From contig CAJYYA010000012.1 in assembly GCA_913778905.1 (NCBI GenBank), positions 1 through 64,000 on the forward strand: a DNA stretch of 64,000 nucleotides. Reading direction: 5' to 3'. A program made the translations under genes and the position numbers. Origin of the DNA: an uncultured Naasia sp. GTDB taxonomy: Bacteria > Actinomycetota > Actinomycetes > Actinomycetales > Microbacteriaceae. The notes beneath the pieces were generated by a model that did no database searches, was not told where the DNA came from, and was given only the letters and a program-made list of their open reading frames with translations. Below, one piece after another: positions 42,225 to 49,721 of this stretch. The stretch's first letter is position 1. Each line of letters begins with the position of its first letter.

Positions 42225-42298
42225 GGGGATGTAGCTCAATGGTAGAGCCTCAGTCTTCCAAACTGATCACGCGGGTTCGATTCCCGTCATCCCCTCCA
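42225..42298 (+). tRNA. tRNA-Gly (anticodon TCC), CCA encoded
   Basis: GGGGATGTAGCTCAATGGTAGAGCCTCAGTCTTCCAAACTGATCACGCGGGTTCGATTCCCGTCATCCCCT followed by CCA. Confidence 0.95.
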
Positions 42299-42382: not shown

Positions 42383-42520
42383 TCAGTCGCTCGGCGGACG
42401 GACGAGCATGCCGACCGAGGTGATCGGGAACCGTCCGCCGCCGGCGATCTGATCGAGTGCTTCCTCGCCGACGCCGTTCTCGGCGGGCGCTTCCTGTACG
42501 TGCTCCGTGTTGTTCGTCAC
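42383..42520 (-). CDS. Putative double-glycine-leader peptide precursor C (45 aa)
   Basis: Translated by hand: MTNNTEHVQEAPAENGVGEEALDQIAGG/GRFPITSVGMLVRPPSD; GAGGAG SD upstream of the GTG start; linked to a C39 exporter. Confidence 0.8.
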   Translation of the reverse strand: MTNNTEHVQEAPAENGVGEEALDQIAGGGRFPITSVGMLVRPPSD

Positions 42521-42583
42521 AGCCACTCCTCGGTCTTGCTGTTCAGGGGATTCGCCCTCCACGCGGAGGGAACGATGCTCATC

Positions 42584-42739
42584 TCAGGGCTGAGGCGAGC
42601 TCGCGGCTCCGGAGAGGTCCTCCACGAACTGATTCCAGGTGTAGCCGCCGCCCTGCGCGCCGGAGACGGCGTCGTCGGAGAGCGGGACGTCCTTCTGGTC
42701 CGTCGTGTCGGATGCGGTTGAGCTGATGCGGTCGTTCAT
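42584..42739 (-). CDS. Putative double-glycine-leader peptide precursor B (51 aa)
   Basis: Translated by hand: MNDRISSTASDTTDQKDVPLSDDAVSGAQGG/GYTWNQFVEDLSGAASSPQP; AAGGA SD upstream of the ATG. Confidence 0.78.
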   Translation of the reverse strand: MNDRISSTASDTTDQKDVPLSDDAVSGAQGGGYTWNQFVEDLSGAASSPQP

Positions 42740-42825
42740 TGAATTTCCTTCTTGTTGATATGGGTACGGCCTGGCGAAGGTCGTCGGGACGCGCTCGCGA
42801 TCTCAGATGCGGCTGAGTTCGGCGC

Positions 42826-42968
42826 CTACGGCCGCACGGTGGCTCCCACCCACTCATCGAAGACATCCCAGATGTGGCCCCCTGCGAACCGGAGACGGAA
42901 TCGTCCGGGAGCGGGGTGTCCTTCTCACCCGTCGAGTCGGATGCGGCAGGTTCGATGCTCTTGTTCAC
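42826..42968 (-). pseudogene. Frameshifted double-glycine precursor A (paralogue of B)
   Basis: Adding one G to the G5 run (CCCCC at 42878-42882 on +) gives MNKSIEPAASDSTGEKDTPLPDDSVSGSQGG/HIWDVFDEWVGATVRP*, colinear with B; GAGGA SD upstream of the GTG. Confidence 0.72.
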
Positions 42969-42995
42969 GATCGTCCTCGTTTCATGACGGGTCGA

Positions 42996-43091
42996 CTATC
43001 CGGTTGTGTTGTGGGCGGGAGAGGAGCTCGGAGAGGCGGCGTGGGCGCTGTAGCCCGTCAGCAGACCCCAACGCGAGTAGGAGCCGATCAT
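42996..43091 (-). CDS. Possible 31-aa peptide, translationally coupled
   Basis: ATG overlaps the TGA of the upstream 54-aa ORF (ATGA); MIGSYSRWGLLTGYSAHAASPSSSPAHNTTG. Confidence 0.3.
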   Translation of the reverse strand: MIGSYSRWGLLTGYSAHAASPSSSPAHNTTG

Positions 43092-43252
43092 TCGCGGTCA
43101 CCCGCGGCATTCATGGCTCGCTCCAGGTCGCCGGGCTGCAGCCTCCCGGGGCCTCGGAACACCCGGCCGTCGGCCAGTTCGACGCGCCACCCGCCGTCCA
43201 CCTCGATGAGCAGATCCTCGGTCAGCGGCGAATCGTTCTCACGTGCGTTCAT
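43088..43252 (-). CDS. Small ORF (54 aa) heading the minus-strand peptide operon; possible GG-type precursor or accessory protein
   Basis: MNARENDSPLTEDLLIEVDGGWRVELADGRVFRGPGRLQPGDLERAMNAAGDRE; GAGGAGA SD; LTEDLLIEVDGG fits the leader consensus. Confidence 0.6.
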   Translation of the reverse strand: MNARENDSPLTEDLLIEVDGGWRVELADGRVFRGPGRLQPGDLERAMNAAGDRE

Positions 43253-43473
43253 CGGTCTCCTCGAGACGTCGTCAATGCCCCGGTGCATTCCCGGCGGTCG
43301 CTTCGAAAGGCCACTGTGCCGAGGATCAGTCGCCCCGACGAGACCCTCTTCGGGGGCCCTGCAGGAGTGGCACCACAACTGGGCCGTTGTCGAAGGACAC
43401 GGCTCCCCCGTACTTTCTGCTTACGAACGCCGGGGGTGGACCGGCGTCGTCACGCAGCATCAGGGGGAACCAA

Positions 43474-44319
43474 GTGGCTGTCACGCCGCAGAGCAGCTCG
43501 GCCGAGCGCCCGGTCTCGCCGTACCGTCAGGAGGCGCTCGACGCTCTCGACATCGGCTCGAAACTGGACCGGCATCTCCGCGCCACGAAGCCCGTTCGGT
43601 GGGTCGCTCTCGCCGCGATCCTCGTACTCATCGCCGCCGCCCTCATCTGGGCCGTCGCCGGCCGGGCCCCGGTGCTGGTCACCGGGAGCGGTGCTCTGCT
43701 CCCCCGTGACGGGCTGGTCAGAATCACCAGCCTGCACGATGGTGCGGTCGTGGACGGCATCGCCGAGGACCGCACCACCGTGGCCAAGGGTGAGACGCTG
43801 CTCGTCCTCGAGGGTGCCGACGGGACCCGGCGTACGATCGTCGCTCCCACCGACGGCGAACTCGTGGAGAGGTCGCCGCTGTCGCTCGGCGACCGGGTCG
43901 CCGACGGCGATGCGGTCGGCGCCATCCTCCCCTCCGGATCGCACGGGGTCGCCGTGGCGTTCGTGAATCCCGTCGCCGCGACCTCGGTCGCGCCCGGGAT
44001 GACCGTGCTCGTCACACCCGATGTGGCCAAGGCCGGCGCCTACGGCCGCATGGTGGGCACGATCACGTCCATCGACCGCGTCCCCTTCGCCGAGCGCGAC
44101 TTCATCGATCTCACCGCGGGGAACGATGCGCTCGCCGCTTCGCTCGCGAGCGAGGGCAGCCTGCGCGTCGTCATCGCGCTCACCCCGGCAGATACTCCGT
44201 CCGGCTTCCTATGGACCTCCGAGAACGGCCCGCCGTTCGCGATCCCCACGGCGAGCGCGGTGAACGTCTCGATCCAGACCGGTGAGCGCGCCCCCATCTC
44301 GTTCCTCGTGGGTGGCTGA
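43474..44319 (+). CDS. HlyD-like secretion adaptor (NHLP bacteriocin system type)
   Basis: One TM near the N-terminus, barrel-sandwich half-motifs, beta-barrel; GTG start after AGGGGGA SD; precedes two ABC transporters. Confidence 0.82.
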   Translation: MAVTPQSSSAERPVSPYRQEALDALDIGSKLDRHLRATKPVRWVALAAILVLIAAALIWAVAGRAPVLVTGSGALLPRDGLVRITSLHDGAVVDGIAEDRTTVAKGETLLVLEGADGTRRTIVAPTDGELVERSPLSLGDRVADGDAVGAILPSGSHGVAVAFVNPVAATSVAPGMTVLVTPDVAKAGAYGRMVGTITSIDRVPFAERDFIDLTAGNDALAASLASEGSLRVVIALTPADTPSGFLWTSENGPPFAIPTASAVNVSIQTGERAPISFLVGG

Positions 44320-44320
44320 T

Positions 44321-46507
44321 ATGACCGTCTCCGCGAAGATTCCCGCTCGCCCGGCTGCGAGTCGCCGGGTCAAGACCCCGACCGTCCTGCAGATGGAGGC
44401 CGCGGAATGCGGGGCCGCCGCCCTCGGCATGCTCCTCGGTCATTACGGCCGTTTCGTGCCGCTCATCGAGCTCCGCGAGACGGTCGGCGTCTCCCGCGAC
44501 GGCACCAATGCGAAGGCCATCCTTCACGCCGCGCGGCTGCACGGTCTCGAGGCCGCCGCCTACCGTCGCGAACCGGCCGATCTCAAGACCCACCCGCTGC
44601 CGGTCATCGTCTGGTGGGAGTTCGATCACTTCCTCGTCGTCGAGGGGTACTCGGCGGGCCGCTGGTATCTCAACGATCCGGCATCGGGACGGCGCTCCGT
44701 CTCGGACGAGGACTTCGGACGCGCGTTCACGGGCATCGTCCTGGATGCGAGACCCGGTGCCGACTTCCAGCGGAGCGGGCGTCGCCCGTCGGCCTGGCTC
44801 GCTCTCATGGAACGCGTCAGCCGTTCCCGCCTCGCCCTGCTCTACGTCGTCCTGGCCGGCGTGGCGATGCTCGCCCCCGGCCTCGCCGTCCCCGCCCTGA
44901 CCCGGGCGTTCGTCGACGGAGCGCTGGTCTCGGATCGGACGGCACTCATCGGGCCGATCCTCGTCGGGCTCGTCCTCGCAGCCGTCGTGCAAGGCGCGCT
45001 GACCTGGCTGCAGGCGGCCGTCACGGTGGATATCCGGGCGGTACTCGGCATCCGGATGTACGCGGCCCAGACCCAGCGACTGCTGGCCCTGCCCATGCGG
45101 TTCTTCCTGCAACGAGCGGCCGGCGACGTCGCCTACCGCGCATCGCTCGGGGGAACCGTCGCGGGCGTGGTGACGGGGCCGCTCGTGGCATCCCTGGTCG
45201 GATTGGTGGTCGCGGCCGCCTACATCGGCATCGTGTTCTCTCTCGATGCGCTGCTGGGCCTGGTCGTCCTCGTGGGCTCACTGGCCGTCGTCGCAGCTAT
45301 CCTGCGCACCGCCGGCAGACAACGGGATCTCTCCAACCGCGCGATGCGCGAGCAGATCGATGCGGCTGTGGCCAAGACCGGCACGCTCGCGCTGATCGAG
45401 ACGGTCAAGGCGCAGGGCGCCGAGGACGAGGCGATGGCGAGGATCAGCGCGGCCCGCGCCCGCCTCGTGGCCGCGCGCGCGGAATCCGAGACGGCTCTGC
45501 TGCCTCTGCTCGCACTCCCCGCTGCCGTCAGCGGCATCATGGCCCTTCTCCTCCTCGCCATCGGCGCCGGGCAGGTCATGTCCAGTCAGATCACGCTGGG
45601 AACGCTCCTCGCCATCCAGTTCCTGTCGGCCGCCGCACTCGCTCCGCTCTCGACCCTGGCGTCGCTCACGGGGCAGGTGCAGCAGATCGCCGCCGTCATC
45701 GATCGCATCGACGACATCGAGGACTCGGGGCTCGACGATGAGATCCAGGCTCGGCTCGGCGGGCGCCGCGCAGATCTCGACGACCGTCCCGTGGAGGGCC
45801 GCATCACCTTCGACGAGGTGAGTTTCGGCTACTCGCTTCTGACTCCCCCTCTGATCCGCGACTTCTCGCTCGACATCCCCGTCGGCTCGCGCGTCGCCAT
45901 CGTGGGCGCGAGCGGCAGCGGCAAATCGACCGTCGCGAAGCTCGTGGTCGGCCTGCTCTCGCCCACGAGCGGGCGCGTGCTGGTGGACGGTCGCGAGCGT
46001 GTGCGCTTCGAGCGGGAGACCCTGGCCGAGGGGATCGGTTACGTCGAACAGAGCACGGCCCTGTTCTCCGCTTCGGTCCGTGACAACATCACGCTGTGGG
46101 ATGACGAGGTCGATGAAGTCGATCTCGTGTCCGCCTGTCGTGACGCGGGCATCCACGATGTCATCGCCGCACGCCCGGGCGGATACGACGGGCTGCTCGG
46201 TGAAGGCGGACGAGGGCTGTCCGGGGGTGAGGCGCAGCGTGTGGAGATCGCGAGGGCTCTTCTCCGCAACCCCCGGATCGTCGTCCTCGACGAGGCGACG
46301 AGCGCACTGGATCCGCTCACCGAGTTGCAGATCGTCGACGCCGTGAGTCGCCGCGGCTGCACCACGGTCATCGTGGCGCACCGTCTGTCCACCGTGCGCG
46401 ACGCCGACCTGATCCTCGTCCTCGACCGCGGAGAGGTCGTCGAACAGGGCACGCACGACCGACTCGTGAGCCTCGACGGCGCCTACGCCCGGCTGGTGCG
46501 CGCATGA
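44321..46507 (+). CDS. C39 peptidase-containing ABC transporter (NHLP bacteriocin export type 1)
   Basis: VLQMEAAECGAAALGMLLGHYG (Cys), FDHFLVVEG (His) and LNDPASGRR (Asp) C39 motifs, then TM domain and ATPase (GASGSGKST, LSGGEAQR). Confidence 0.93.
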   Translation: MTVSAKIPARPAASRRVKTPTVLQMEAAECGAAALGMLLGHYGRFVPLIELRETVGVSRDGTNAKAILHAARLHGLEAAAYRREPADLKTHPLPVIVWWEFDHFLVVEGYSAGRWYLNDPASGRRSVSDEDFGRAFTGIVLDARPGADFQRSGRRPSAWLALMERVSRSRLALLYVVLAGVAMLAPGLAVPALTRAFVDGALVSDRTALIGPILVGLVLAAVVQGALTWLQAAVTVDIRAVLGIRMYAAQTQRLLALPMRFFLQRAAGDVAYRASLGGTVAGVVTGPLVASLVGLVVAAAYIGIVFSLDALLGLVVLVGSLAVVAAILRTAGRQRDLSNRAMREQIDAAVAKTGTLALIETVKAQGAEDEAMARISAARARLVAARAESETALLPLLALPAAVSGIMALLLLAIGAGQVMSSQITLGTLLAIQFLSAAALAPLSTLASLTGQVQQIAAVIDRIDDIEDSGLDDEIQARLGGRRADLDDRPVEGRITFDEVSFGYSLLTPPLIRDFSLDIPVGSRVAIVGASGSGKSTVAKLVVGLLSPTSGRVLVDGRERVRFERETLAEGIGYVEQSTALFSASVRDNITLWDDEVDEVDLVSACRDAGIHDVIAARPGGYDGLLGEGGRGLSGGEAQRVEIARALLRNPRIVVLDEATSALDPLTELQIVDAVSRRGCTTVIVAHRLSTVRDADLILVLDRGEVVEQGTHDRLVSLDGAYARLVRA

Positions 46508-48687
46508 GCGGGCACGATCGCGCCGGGTTGTTGCGTCGCCGGGAGCTGGAGGAGCAGCGCGCGTTCGCCGCCCTCATGGTGTCCGCGCCGCACCGTCCCC
46601 TCGACGCACAGCGCGCCACGACCGACCTCGGTCGCGATGCCGAACGCGAAGCCCTGGCCCTGATCGGTATCGAGGTTCCGGACCGGCCCGTGCACGGCTC
46701 CGCGGATACGTCCGCCACCGACCTGCTCGCCCGGTTGGCCGCCCGCGCAGCCGGTTCTGGAGGGCTCGTCCGCCGTGTCCGAGTGGCCCCCGATTGGGAT
46801 CGTGGCCTTCTGCGCCCCGTCCTCGCCATCGCGGAGGGCCGCCCCGTCGTCCTCGTTCCCGGATTCCCGCTCGCCCGCATGGTCGATCCCCGCACCGGTC
46901 GGAGCATCCCGCGCCGCGCCCGCCCGGCGGTAGAGCCCGAAGGGCTGCACTCGGTCGACGATCTGCCCTCGAGAGCCCGGCTGCGAGACCTCGTCGAGCT
47001 GTCCGGTCGCGGCAATCGTCCCGCGCTCATCCTCGTGGCGCTCTTGACGCTCCTCGCCGGCGGCCTGTCCGTCCTCCTCCCGCTCGCGAGCGGTCTCATC
47101 GTGAGTCGGATCGTCCCCGACGACGACACCCCCCGTCTGGTCGCGCTGGTCACGGCGCTCGTCCTCGCCACCATCGCGAGCGCGGGATTGCAGATCGCGC
47201 AGGGGCGAGTCCTCGCCACCATTCGTTCCCGGTCCGACATCGCGGTCGGGGACGCGGTCTGGCGTCGGCTCCTCCTCCTCCCGCCCTCGTTCCACGCGCG
47301 ATACACCACGGCGGATCTTGCCGATCGGGCCGACGCGATCGACGACCTGCGTCAAGCGATGGGGGCCGCCTTCGGGTCGGGTCTCGTGTCGGTCGTCGTC
47401 GCCCTCTCGAGCGTCCTCGTGCTGTTCTCGGCGAACCCCGTCGTCGGCGGTGTCGCTCTGACGGCGGTGGCCGTTCAGGGTCTGATCGTGCTGTGGACCC
47501 AGAAGCTCCGCACGGCGGTGCAGCGCAGGGAACTGCAGGCGGTTGCGGATCGCGACGGACTCATGCTCCAGGCCGTCGCGGCCATCGCGCGCATCCGTGT
47601 CTCCGCCGCCGAGAACCGCGTCTTCACCCAACTCGCCCGGCGCTTCGCCGATCTGCGCGTGCCCCAGCACGAAGACGGCGAACTGCTCAAACGGAATCAG
47701 ACGATCGCCGCGCTCTGGCCCGTGCTGGGTGTCCTCATCGTCACGGTGGGTGTGGTCGCCAGCGGCGCCGGCTCGACGGGTCTCGGCACCTACATCGTGC
47801 TGACCACTGCGATCGCGCAGGTGCTCACCGCGACGGCCACTCTCTTCGCCGTCGCGGCTGGACTGGTCGGCGTGCTGCCGCAGGTCGAGCGCCTGGCGCC
47901 GATCCTGGAGGCCACCCCGGAGACCGTGCACTCCGGCGCCCCCGACGGAGACCTTCGGCTCTCCGGAGCCGTCTCGCTCGAACACGTCACCTTCCGCTAC
48001 GGCGACACCGCGAGCGCTGTCGTTCTCGACGACGTGTCGTTCGAAGCCGCGGCCGGCGAGTTCGTGGCCGTCGTGGGCCCGAGTGGATCCGGTAAGTCCA
48101 CGATCCTGCGCCTCCTGCTCGGCTTCGAGGAGCCCGAGGCGGGCAGCGTCCGCTTCGACGGGCGCGATCTGGGCCAGCTCCCGCGACAGGCCGTCCGGCG
48201 GCGTATCGGGACGGTCCTCCAGACGGCCAGTCTGTTCCCCGGATCCATCGCCGACAACATCTCAGCCGGACGGCTGCTCTCCCGCGACAGGATCTGGGCA
48301 GCCGCGGAAGCGGCGGCGGTCGCCGACGACATCCGCGCCATGCCCATGGGGCTCGAGACGCCACTCGTCGAAGGCGCCGCGTCGATCTCGGGAGGTCAGC
48401 GGCAGCGCATCGTCATCGCGCGGGCTCTCGCGGGCGAACCGGACCTCATGTTCTTCGACGAGGCGACTTCGGCACTCGACAACGTGGCGCAGCAGACGGT
48501 GTCGGCATCGATCTCCGCCCGTCGCGTGACCCGCATCGTCATCGCCCACCGCCTGTCCACGGTGCTAGGCGCCGACCGCATCATCGTCCTCGACCACGGG
48601 CGGGTCGTTCAGAACGGCACCTTCGACGAGCTGATGGCCGTGCCGGGACTCTTCCGCGACCTGGCGGAGCGTCAACTGGTCGGCTGA
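46504..48687 (+). CDS. Second ABC transporter permease/ATPase (NHLP bacteriocin export type 2)
   Basis: About 200-aa N-terminal region without an obvious C39 Cys motif, TM domain, ATPase (GPSGSGKST, ISGGQRQR); 4-bp overlap with the C39 transporter. Confidence 0.88.
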   Translation: MSGHDRAGLLRRRELEEQRAFAALMVSAPHRPLDAQRATTDLGRDAEREALALIGIEVPDRPVHGSADTSATDLLARLAARAAGSGGLVRRVRVAPDWDRGLLRPVLAIAEGRPVVLVPGFPLARMVDPRTGRSIPRRARPAVEPEGLHSVDDLPSRARLRDLVELSGRGNRPALILVALLTLLAGGLSVLLPLASGLIVSRIVPDDDTPRLVALVTALVLATIASAGLQIAQGRVLATIRSRSDIAVGDAVWRRLLLLPPSFHARYTTADLADRADAIDDLRQAMGAAFGSGLVSVVVALSSVLVLFSANPVVGGVALTAVAVQGLIVLWTQKLRTAVQRRELQAVADRDGLMLQAVAAIARIRVSAAENRVFTQLARRFADLRVPQHEDGELLKRNQTIAALWPVLGVLIVTVGVVASGAGSTGLGTYIVLTTAIAQVLTATATLFAVAAGLVGVLPQVERLAPILEATPETVHSGAPDGDLRLSGAVSLEHVTFRYGDTASAVVLDDVSFEAAAGEFVAVVGPSGSGKSTILRLLLGFEEPEAGSVRFDGRDLGQLPRQAVRRRIGTVLQTASLFPGSIADNISAGRLLSRDRIWAAAEAAAVADDIRAMPMGLETPLVEGAASISGGQRQRIVIARALAGEPDLMFFDEATSALDNVAQQTVSASISARRVTRIVIAHRLSTVLGADRIIVLDHGRVVQNGTFDELMAVPGLFRDLAERQLVG

Positions 48688-48736: not shown

Positions 48737-49582
48737 TCAGTCCAGCCCCAGTTCCCGGCGGATCCGCGTCCGCTCGGCCGCGGTGGCCGGGTCGTTTCCC
48801 AAGAACGCGAGTTTCGCTGCCACCACTGAGCCGTCCGGGACGTCCGACGCGGGACCCGAGAGGACGAAGGTCGCGAAGGTCTCCGCGAAGTCCTCCGCCC
48901 CGTTCGTCGCCGCGTATTCGGAGACGAACGCGTCCGCGCCACCCTCCGACTCGTACTTCCGGGTGGCGTCCTCCTCCGTCGCCGCCTCGGCCTCCGCCCC
49001 GGTCTGGTCGTCCGCCCAGAACCGGGCGAGGAACCGACCGAGTATCGACCGCTCTGCGAGGCACCCTTCGGAGAACTCGAAGGTCGGGCATGCCCCCTGG
49101 ACGACCGCGACGTCGTCCGCGGAGAGACTGTAGATGTGCCCGTACTCGTGCACCATCGTGCGGCGCAGCTCGTCGGAATCCGTCGCCCAGGCCATGTTCA
49201 ACTCCGCATCCCAGATGCGGGGGTCGTCGGAGTCGCGCGCAACGGAGGCCATTGTCGACTCGTTCGAGTCGTCGGAGACCGAGACGCTCCTGACCTCGAT
49301 CGCCCGCTCCCCCATGATCGTCGTCCACTGCGACCAGGCGTCGGCGAGTTCGCGATCGGCGGCGGCACCGCTCTCCTGCTCGTGGAGGACGCCGTCGCGC
49401 ACGTCGTAGCGGATCGGTTCCGCGTAAGCAGCCCCCTTCCACGCGGCCTCGGACCGATTCGGAGAGGAGGCGTCGAGCAGGCCGCCCACCGCCCAGGTCG
49501 CCGCGACGACGGTCCCCACCGCGGTCAGTAGACCGACCATCGCCAACGAGACGATCAGGATGACAAATGGTCGTTTTCGCAC
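48737..49582 (-). CDS. Membrane-anchored putative zinc metalloprotease
   Basis: N-terminal TM; HEYGH (HExxH) motif; downstream GAEDFAETFATFV. Confidence 0.65.
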   Translation of the reverse strand: MRKRPFVILIVSLAMVGLLTAVGTVVAATWAVGGLLDASSPNRSEAAWKGAAYAEPIRYDVRDGVLHEQESGAAADRELADAWSQWTTIMGERAIEVRSVSVSDDSNESTMASVARDSDDPRIWDAELNMAWATDSDELRRTMVHEYGHIYSLSADDVAVVQGACPTFEFSEGCLAERSILGRFLARFWADDQTGAEAEAATEEDATRKYESEGGADAFVSEYAATNGAEDFAETFATFVLSGPASDVPDGSVVAAKLAFLGNDPATAAERTRIRRELGLD

Positions 49583-49721
49583 GGGGCGAGGCTATCGGGC
49601 CGGCAACACTTTCGATGCCCGCGACGCGGGACGCGTGGAGCGGATCCGTGTCACAGAGAGTGAAGGCTGGGAGAAAGCTTTCTGTTCGGCACGAGATAGC
49701 CGTGACCGACATACTGGTCCG

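What the first reader, a model, noticed from the sequence alone, without database searches (positions are those of the whole stretch)
42383..48687. GG-leader peptide cluster with an NHLP-type dual-ABC exporter and no visible maturation enzyme
Seen: three short minus-strand ORFs, each with an SD, encode acidic leaders ending in GG. Aligned at positions -12 to -1 they read VGEEALDQIAGG (C), LSDDAVSGAQGG (B) and LPDDSVSGSQGG (A, after frame repair), close to the LSxxELxxIxGG double-glycine consensus. They are divergent from HlyD + C39-ABC + ABC, and the C39 domain keeps its Cys, His and Asp motifs. Predicted exported cores are short and Cys-free: GRFPITSVGMLVRPPSD, GYTWNQFVEDLSGAASSPQP and HIWDVFDEWVGATVRP. 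Knowledge: C39 ABC transporters cleave after GG, and HlyD/ABC1/ABC2 trios are known from NHLP bacteriocin systems, where precursors are often modified. Inference: with no LanM, YcaO, radical SAM or nitrile-hydratase-like gene in the window, this may be a family of secreted unmodified peptides (bacteriocin or signal).
Basis: partly seen in the sequence, partly recalled or inferred. Interest (0 to 1): 0.86.

Follow-up and report, generated by a model that had tools for sequence, protein, structure and literature searches.

The report
Small-peptide export cassette, no modifying enzyme
A bacterium (by its relatives an actinobacterium) carries a compact cassette of tiny secreted-peptide genes next to a three-part cutter-exporter pump; it is real and probably ships short unmodified peptides, but the same kind of cassette is already known from Streptomyces and cyanobacteria.

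Summary
HlyD (43474-44319), C39-ABC (44321-46507) and ABC (46504-48687) match NHLM export families TIGR03794/03796/03797 best, but each falls below its curated cut-off. C39 keeps Gln24, Cys30, His103 and Asp119. A strict pattern finds three such ORFs in the 64-kb window, all here, against two in 260 kb of control DNA from the same genome.

The closest exporter found (50% identity, tree support 100/99) serves an NHLP/LanM lanthipeptide cluster in another family. The window's genome has no LanC-like gene. A same-family genome, G106, carries one divergent Cys-free GG peptide before hlyD. Precursors B, C and D have no relatives in 369 family genomes. The cassette sits in an interval that varies among relatives.

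Most likely it exports short linear peptides cleaved after GG. Precedents exist: SCO0753-0756 and cyanobacterial group V. New member of a known kind; biological role unresolved.

The parts
42383..42520 (-). precursor C: MTNNTEHVQEAPAENGVGEEALDQIAGG|GRFPITSVGMLVRPPSD (GTG start)
   Evidence: SD CGAGGAG upstream; V-12, L-7, I-4, GG; leader charge -6; Cys-free core
42584..42739 (-). precursor B: MNDRISSTASDTTDQKDVPLSDDAVSGAQGG|GYTWNQFVEDLSGAASSPQP
   Evidence: SD AGAAGGAAA; L-12, V-7, GG; duplicate of A, 76% over 88 nt
42826..42968 (-). precursor A, frame broken in a G run at the GG; leader MNKSIEPAASDSTGEKDTPLPDDSVSGSQG, core frame reads HIWDVFDEWVGATVRP
   Evidence: SD ACGAGGA; leader and core region align to B
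   Evidence: SD CGAGGAGACCG-ATG; L-12, T-11, L-7, V-4, GG; Cys-free
43253..43473 (.). divergent intergenic region between precursor operon and hlyD, presumably the promoters
   Evidence: position only; no sigma-70-like site found
43474..44319 (+). short HlyD-type adaptor, 281 aa (GTG start)
   Evidence: TIGR03794 119.5 bits, cut-off 156.2; 42% to L090 HlyD
44321..46507 (+). ABC1: C39 peptidase-permease-ATPase, 728 aa
   Evidence: TIGR03796 820 bits, cut-off 853; PF03412 113.9 bits; Q24/C30/H103/D119 and Walker/signature motifs intact
46504..48687 (+). ABC2: peptidase-less permease-ATPase, 727 aa, start overlaps ABC1 stop by 4 nt
   Evidence: TIGR03797 601.5 bits, cut-off 709.4; nucleotide-binding motifs intact
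42225..42298 (+). tRNA-Gly(TCC) marking the left edge of the variable interval
   Evidence: ARAGORN; the stretch is 98.7-100% conserved in two congeners that lack the cassette

Best explanation
A probably horizontally acquired peptide-export cassette. Three to four short precursors are made with acidic GG leaders. The C39 domain of ABC1 grips the leader through hydrophobic residues at about -12, -7 and -4 and cuts after GG. The ABC1/ABC2 pair with the short HlyD exports the 17-33 residue Cys-free cores as linear, probably unmodified peptides. The exporter is closest to one that serves an NHLP/LanM lanthipeptide cluster, but here neither the enzyme nor that precursor type is present. Shown: gene content, leader pattern, catalytic residues, phylogeny of ABC1, absence of LanC. 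Inferred: expression, cleavage, export, lack of modification, and role (signal, bacteriocin or surface peptide).
For: Trio and its best families; C39 residues; leader pattern enrichment; C39 pocket rules for -4/-7/-12 (PMC6363468); no LanC-like gene in the genome while the same search rings in G1069, G1087 and G861; housekeeping neighbours; same-family G106 locus with one Cys-free GG peptide divergent from hlyD; Cys-free GG peptide beside hlyD in large-genome actinomycetes; SCO0753-0756 in the literature (PMC6629963); tree with L090 as sister 100/99 and not the same-family loci; cassette in 1 of 9 congeners at an interval with other content in relatives.
Against: All three proteins fall below the NCBIfam equivalog cut-offs. 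B, C and D have no homologue in 369 family genomes. Precursor A is frame-broken, so decay is possible. A/B differences are mostly non-synonymous, so no purifying selection is shown (read from the two sequences). Only 12 of 26 relative loci gave a GG ORF under the strict pattern, partly because NHLP-type leaders and contig ends escape it. Non-LanC enzymes elsewhere in the genome were not searched.
Confidence: 0.7

Rival explanations
1. Remnant of a class II lanthipeptide cluster that lost LanM and its NHLP precursors and is decaying; the short ORFs are left-overs.
For: Sister exporter L090 is an NHLP/LanM cluster; precursor A is broken.
Against: Remaining precursors are unrelated to NHLP and Cys-free, so they are not left-over lanthipeptides; C and B are intact with SDs; all three exporter genes are intact with GC3 of 0.86-0.88.
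Confidence: 0.12
2. The cores are modified by an enzyme encoded elsewhere in the genome (YcaO, radical SAM, glycosyltransferase, etc.).
For: Related exporters sit with modifying genes: LanM in L090/L134 and glycosyltransferases in L012, L013 and L113. Only LanC was searched genome-wide with a working control.
Against: Short Cys-free cores; no candidate recognised in the neighbourhood.
Confidence: 0.15
3. The short ORFs are chance and the exporter handles something else.
For: No homologues of the peptides; rapid divergence.
Against: Pattern enrichment about 5e-8; A/B duplication preserving the leader; same layout in G106.
Confidence: 0.03

Closest known systems
Streptomyces coelicolor SCO0753-SCO0756 (PMC6629963)
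   Same: small Cys-free precursor next to HlyD + two ABC genes, no lanthionine chemistry possible
   Different: one hydrophobic 77-aa peptide reported upstream of the operon there; here three to four divergent peptides with short cores. The SCO0753 sequence itself was not compared here.
NHLP/LanM class II lanthipeptide clusters with the NHLM export trio (Haft 2010, PMC2887384; here L134+L090)
   Same: same three exporter families and gene order HlyD-ABC1-ABC2; closest exporter sequences (50% ABC1, 42% ABC2, 42% HlyD)
   Different: no LanM, no NHLP leader, no Cys in cores
Cyanobacterial group V bacteriocin clusters (Wang 2011, PMC3140520)
   Same: HlyD, C39-ABC and peptidase-less ABC with several GG precursors; LanM clusters form a separate group IV
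   Different: Gram-negative hosts; NHLP/Nif11 precursors are common there
Class II (unmodified) bacteriocin / PCAT systems such as ComA and PCAT1
   Same: C39 cleavage after GG, linear cores
   Different: single PCAT rather than an HlyD/ABC1/ABC2 trio; A and B cores are anionic, with no immunity gene recognised

Membership tests
NHLM export system (TIGR03794/03796/03797) | scores over the curated cut-offs | tested here: not met
   119.5/156.2, 820.1/853.3, 601.5/709.4 bits; best-matching families all the same. The LanM-linked sister G1069 also falls below the ABC2 cut-off, 629.9 bits
NHLM export system (TIGR03794/03796/03797) | three adjacent genes HlyD, C39-ABC, peptidase-less ABC | tested here: met
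NHLP or Nif11 precursor family (TIGR03793/03798) | precursor with NHLP/Nif11 leader | tested here: not met
   no NCBIfam hit for B, C or D at E 0.01
Class II lanthipeptide cluster | LanM/LanC enzyme in the genome | tested here: not met
   PF05147 none in G000, found in G1069; PF13575 none, but without a positive control
Class II lanthipeptide cluster | Cys plus Ser/Thr in cores | tested here: not met
   all cores Cys-free
C39/PCAT double-glycine peptide exporters | catalytic Cys/His/Asp and oxyanion Gln | tested here: met
   PF03412 113.9 bits
C39/PCAT double-glycine peptide exporters | adjacent substrates with hydrophobic -12/-7/-4 and GG | tested here: met
   pocket residues from PMC6363468
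C39/PCAT double-glycine peptide exporters | cleavage after GG and export | not testable with these tools
   needs protein assay
Unmodified bacteriocin | dedicated immunity gene | tested here: inconclusive
   no candidate recognised among the genes listed or scanned next to the cassette, but immunity proteins are small and diverse

The most novel reading that the evidence does not exclude
An exporter related to those of NHLP/LanM lanthipeptide clusters has been captured by gene transfer and paired with a fresh, fast-diverging set of unmodified Cys-free peptides, so that the export module rather than the chemistry is the unit of evolution.
Probability: 0.35. Interest if true: 0.5.

Novelty: new member of a known kind. 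Interest (0 to 1): 0.37.

Why it matters
It adds a rare, apparently enzyme-free peptide-export cassette to its family (this genome, G106 and two related small genomes among about 400 sampled) and supports the 2010 proposal that the NHLM exporter is mixed and matched with different precursors and chemistries. It also gives a small, testable set of native peptides for assigning a function to Cys-free GG peptides in actinobacteria, whose published example found here, SCO0753, has unknown function.

Tried and rejected
The genome-contig scan with ABC2 gave only remote ABC proteins. Plasmid tblastn gave nothing at 1e-60. An order-level BLAST with ABC2 found only the window itself at 1e-85. Hits of the joined precursor query in other genomes straddle the artificial joins or lie inside large frames at E of 9e-4 or more, so they were rejected. 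The neighbouring zinc metallopeptidase (48737-49582) was considered as an accessory and left out: weak Peptidase_Mx match below cut-off, no link shown. Phylogeny was done for ABC1 only; ABC2 and HlyD rest on pairwise identity. PF13575 rang in no control, so PF05147 was used instead. A structure job for a transferase of L012 was not sent because that locus is outside the tool's stated scope.

Full report
What is there. HlyD is a short 281-aa protein at 43474-44319 (+), ABC1 with a C39 domain is at 44321-46507 (+), and ABC2 without a peptidase is at 46504-48687 (+). Their best NCBIfam matches are TIGR03794, TIGR03796 and TIGR03797, the NHLM (NHLP) bacteriocin export families, with 119.5, 820.1 and 601.5 bits against cut-offs of 156.2, 853.3 and 709.4. 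They are therefore nearest to these families but formally below threshold. The C39 domain matches PF03412 with 113.9 bits, and Gln24, Cys30, His103 and Asp119 are present together with the nucleotide-binding motifs of both ABC proteins.

The small ORFs. On the minus strand, divergent from hlyD, lie D (43252-43088), A (42968-42826), B (42739-42584) and C (42520-42383), each behind a Shine-Dalgarno-like stretch. A is not intact: the frame breaks in a G run exactly at the GG, and its core can only be inferred. A and B are a tandem duplication, 76% identical over 88 nt, with similarity running into the core. Comparing the two leaders codon by codon (sequences), most differing codons are non-synonymous, so the pair shows fast divergence and gives no evidence of purifying selection. 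All cores are Cys-free; the A and B cores carry charge -2, C +1 and D 0.

Chance. With a pattern requiring hydrophobic -12 and -7, small or hydrophobic -4, GG, a Shine-Dalgarno-like site, short length and an acidic leader, the 64-kb window gives three hits, exactly C, B and D, whereas 260 kb of the same genome outside the window give two. For 0.9 kb this corresponds to a Poisson probability of about 5e-8; the pattern was fixed after the leaders had been seen, so the figure is indicative. Without the acidity condition the window gives four hits, one antisense to hlyD, and the control six. The positions are those that fill the hydrophobic groove of a C39 protease in the LahT structure (Val-4, Leu-7, Leu-12; PMC6363468).

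Surroundings. The cassette lies between tRNA-Gly at 42225-42298 and, beyond a metallopeptidase gene, a flotillin-like gene at 49617. Other nearby genes are trigger factor, clpX, clpP-like ORFs, a class-V aminotransferase and a NifU-like gene. In congener G002 the same tRNA and flotillin genes flank about 3.3 kb without the trio, and in G006 about 9 kb of other genes. The trio is in 1 of 9 congeners and in 3 of 400 family genomes at a strict threshold on ABC2; a second family search with ABC1 adds G106. GC content does not stand out: 0.705 for the trio and 0.655 for the peptides against 0.686 for the rest.

Relatives. A class-wide search found strong TIGR03797 matches in 61 of 395 genomes. Among the loci read, the closest exporter is L090 of G1069, from another family: 50% for ABC1 over its aligned span, 42% for ABC2, 42% for HlyD. 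A maximum-likelihood tree of ABC1 joins window and L090 with 100/99 support and puts the same-family loci L139, L012 and L013 elsewhere; this discordance suggests horizontal transfer. In G1069 a LanM over the NCBIfam cut-off (373.8 bits, cut-off 304) and several precursors with NHLP-like leaders (TIGR03793 49.6 bits, just under the cut-off of 50.9, for the one scanned) precede hlyD. The LanM is complete on contig C81, and contig C211, which holds the exporter genes, begins with a near-identical LanM end (94% over 99 residues), so two close copies or strain variants exist in that assembly.

Same-family case. G106 (L139) has hlyD and ABC1 with one divergent short ORF just upstream, MTMDETPRPQDATEDLDDAELTNIVGG|QGTPVFGQRIGDGGTGPYN. 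This is the window's layout: a Cys-free short core and a canonical leader. Large-genome actinomycetes (L082, L083) have a Cys-free GG peptide beside hlyD. In the literature this resembles SCO0753-0756 of S. coelicolor, a 77-aa peptide without cysteine upstream of HlyD and two ABC genes (PMC6629963); I did not compare its sequence. No relative of B, C or D was found outside this genome: 369 family genomes gave only hits that straddle the joins of the query or lie in large frames, at E of 9e-4 or more.

Modification enzymes. PF05147 (LanC-like) finds nothing in the window's genome but rings in G1069, G1087 and G861.

Mechanism. Shown: the parts, the catalytic residues, the leader pattern and the lack of a LanC-like gene. 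Inferred: C39 cuts after GG, and ABC1/ABC2 with the short HlyD export linear cores. The role is undecided. The anionic A and B cores and the lack of a recognised immunity gene speak mildly against a classical bacteriocin, while several diversified peptides speak mildly for competition or signalling.

Placement. Haft et al. 2010 described the trio and noted that it is more widely distributed than its NHLP substrates (PMC2887384). Wang et al. 2011 described cyanobacterial clusters with the trio and GG precursors (group V), separate from the LanM group (PMC3140520). The window is therefore a new, divergent member of a known kind.

Noticed in passing
L012:4645-17467 and L013:4699-15223 (same family, small genomes G339, G188); L113 and L114 (another family): Exporter relatives sit with glycosyltransferases (Anp1 4.8e-51, Glyco_transf_7C 6e-13, group 1) and, in L012/L013, arrays of about 11 and 5 GG-leader peptides whose cores are rich in N-x-S/T, e.g. 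YTVNETIYFQ, YSYNSTIYFQ; L113/L114 have YTVNQTLYFQ and YSVNQTIYYQ. Sequons are 22 against 10.8 expected after shuffling. Possibly glycosylated secreted peptides, a lead more unusual than the window itself.
   Followed up: partly
L012:6512-7516: Protein in that cluster with a weak PqqD-like N-terminus (20.2 bits, cut-off 23.4), perhaps a leader-binding domain joined to a transferase-like part; the L013 counterpart gave no Pfam hit.
   Followed up: partly
L113:2610-3329 and L114:12832-13545: Secreted-looking 237-239 aa proteins end near GYSWNSSVYFQ / GYSYNTQVYFQ, the same motif as the neighbouring GG-peptide cores.
   Followed up: no
L084 (G1097): Five GG-leader ORFs with Cys-free, charged cores around one exporter trio.
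   Followed up: no
window:48737-49582: HExxH zinc metallopeptidase gene convergent with ABC2, not found in the flotillin neighbourhoods of five congeners; Peptidase_Mx match below cut-off.
   Followed up: partly
window:42302-42337: Perfect 18-bp inverted repeat with no loop directly after tRNA-Gly, probably its terminator.
   Followed up: no
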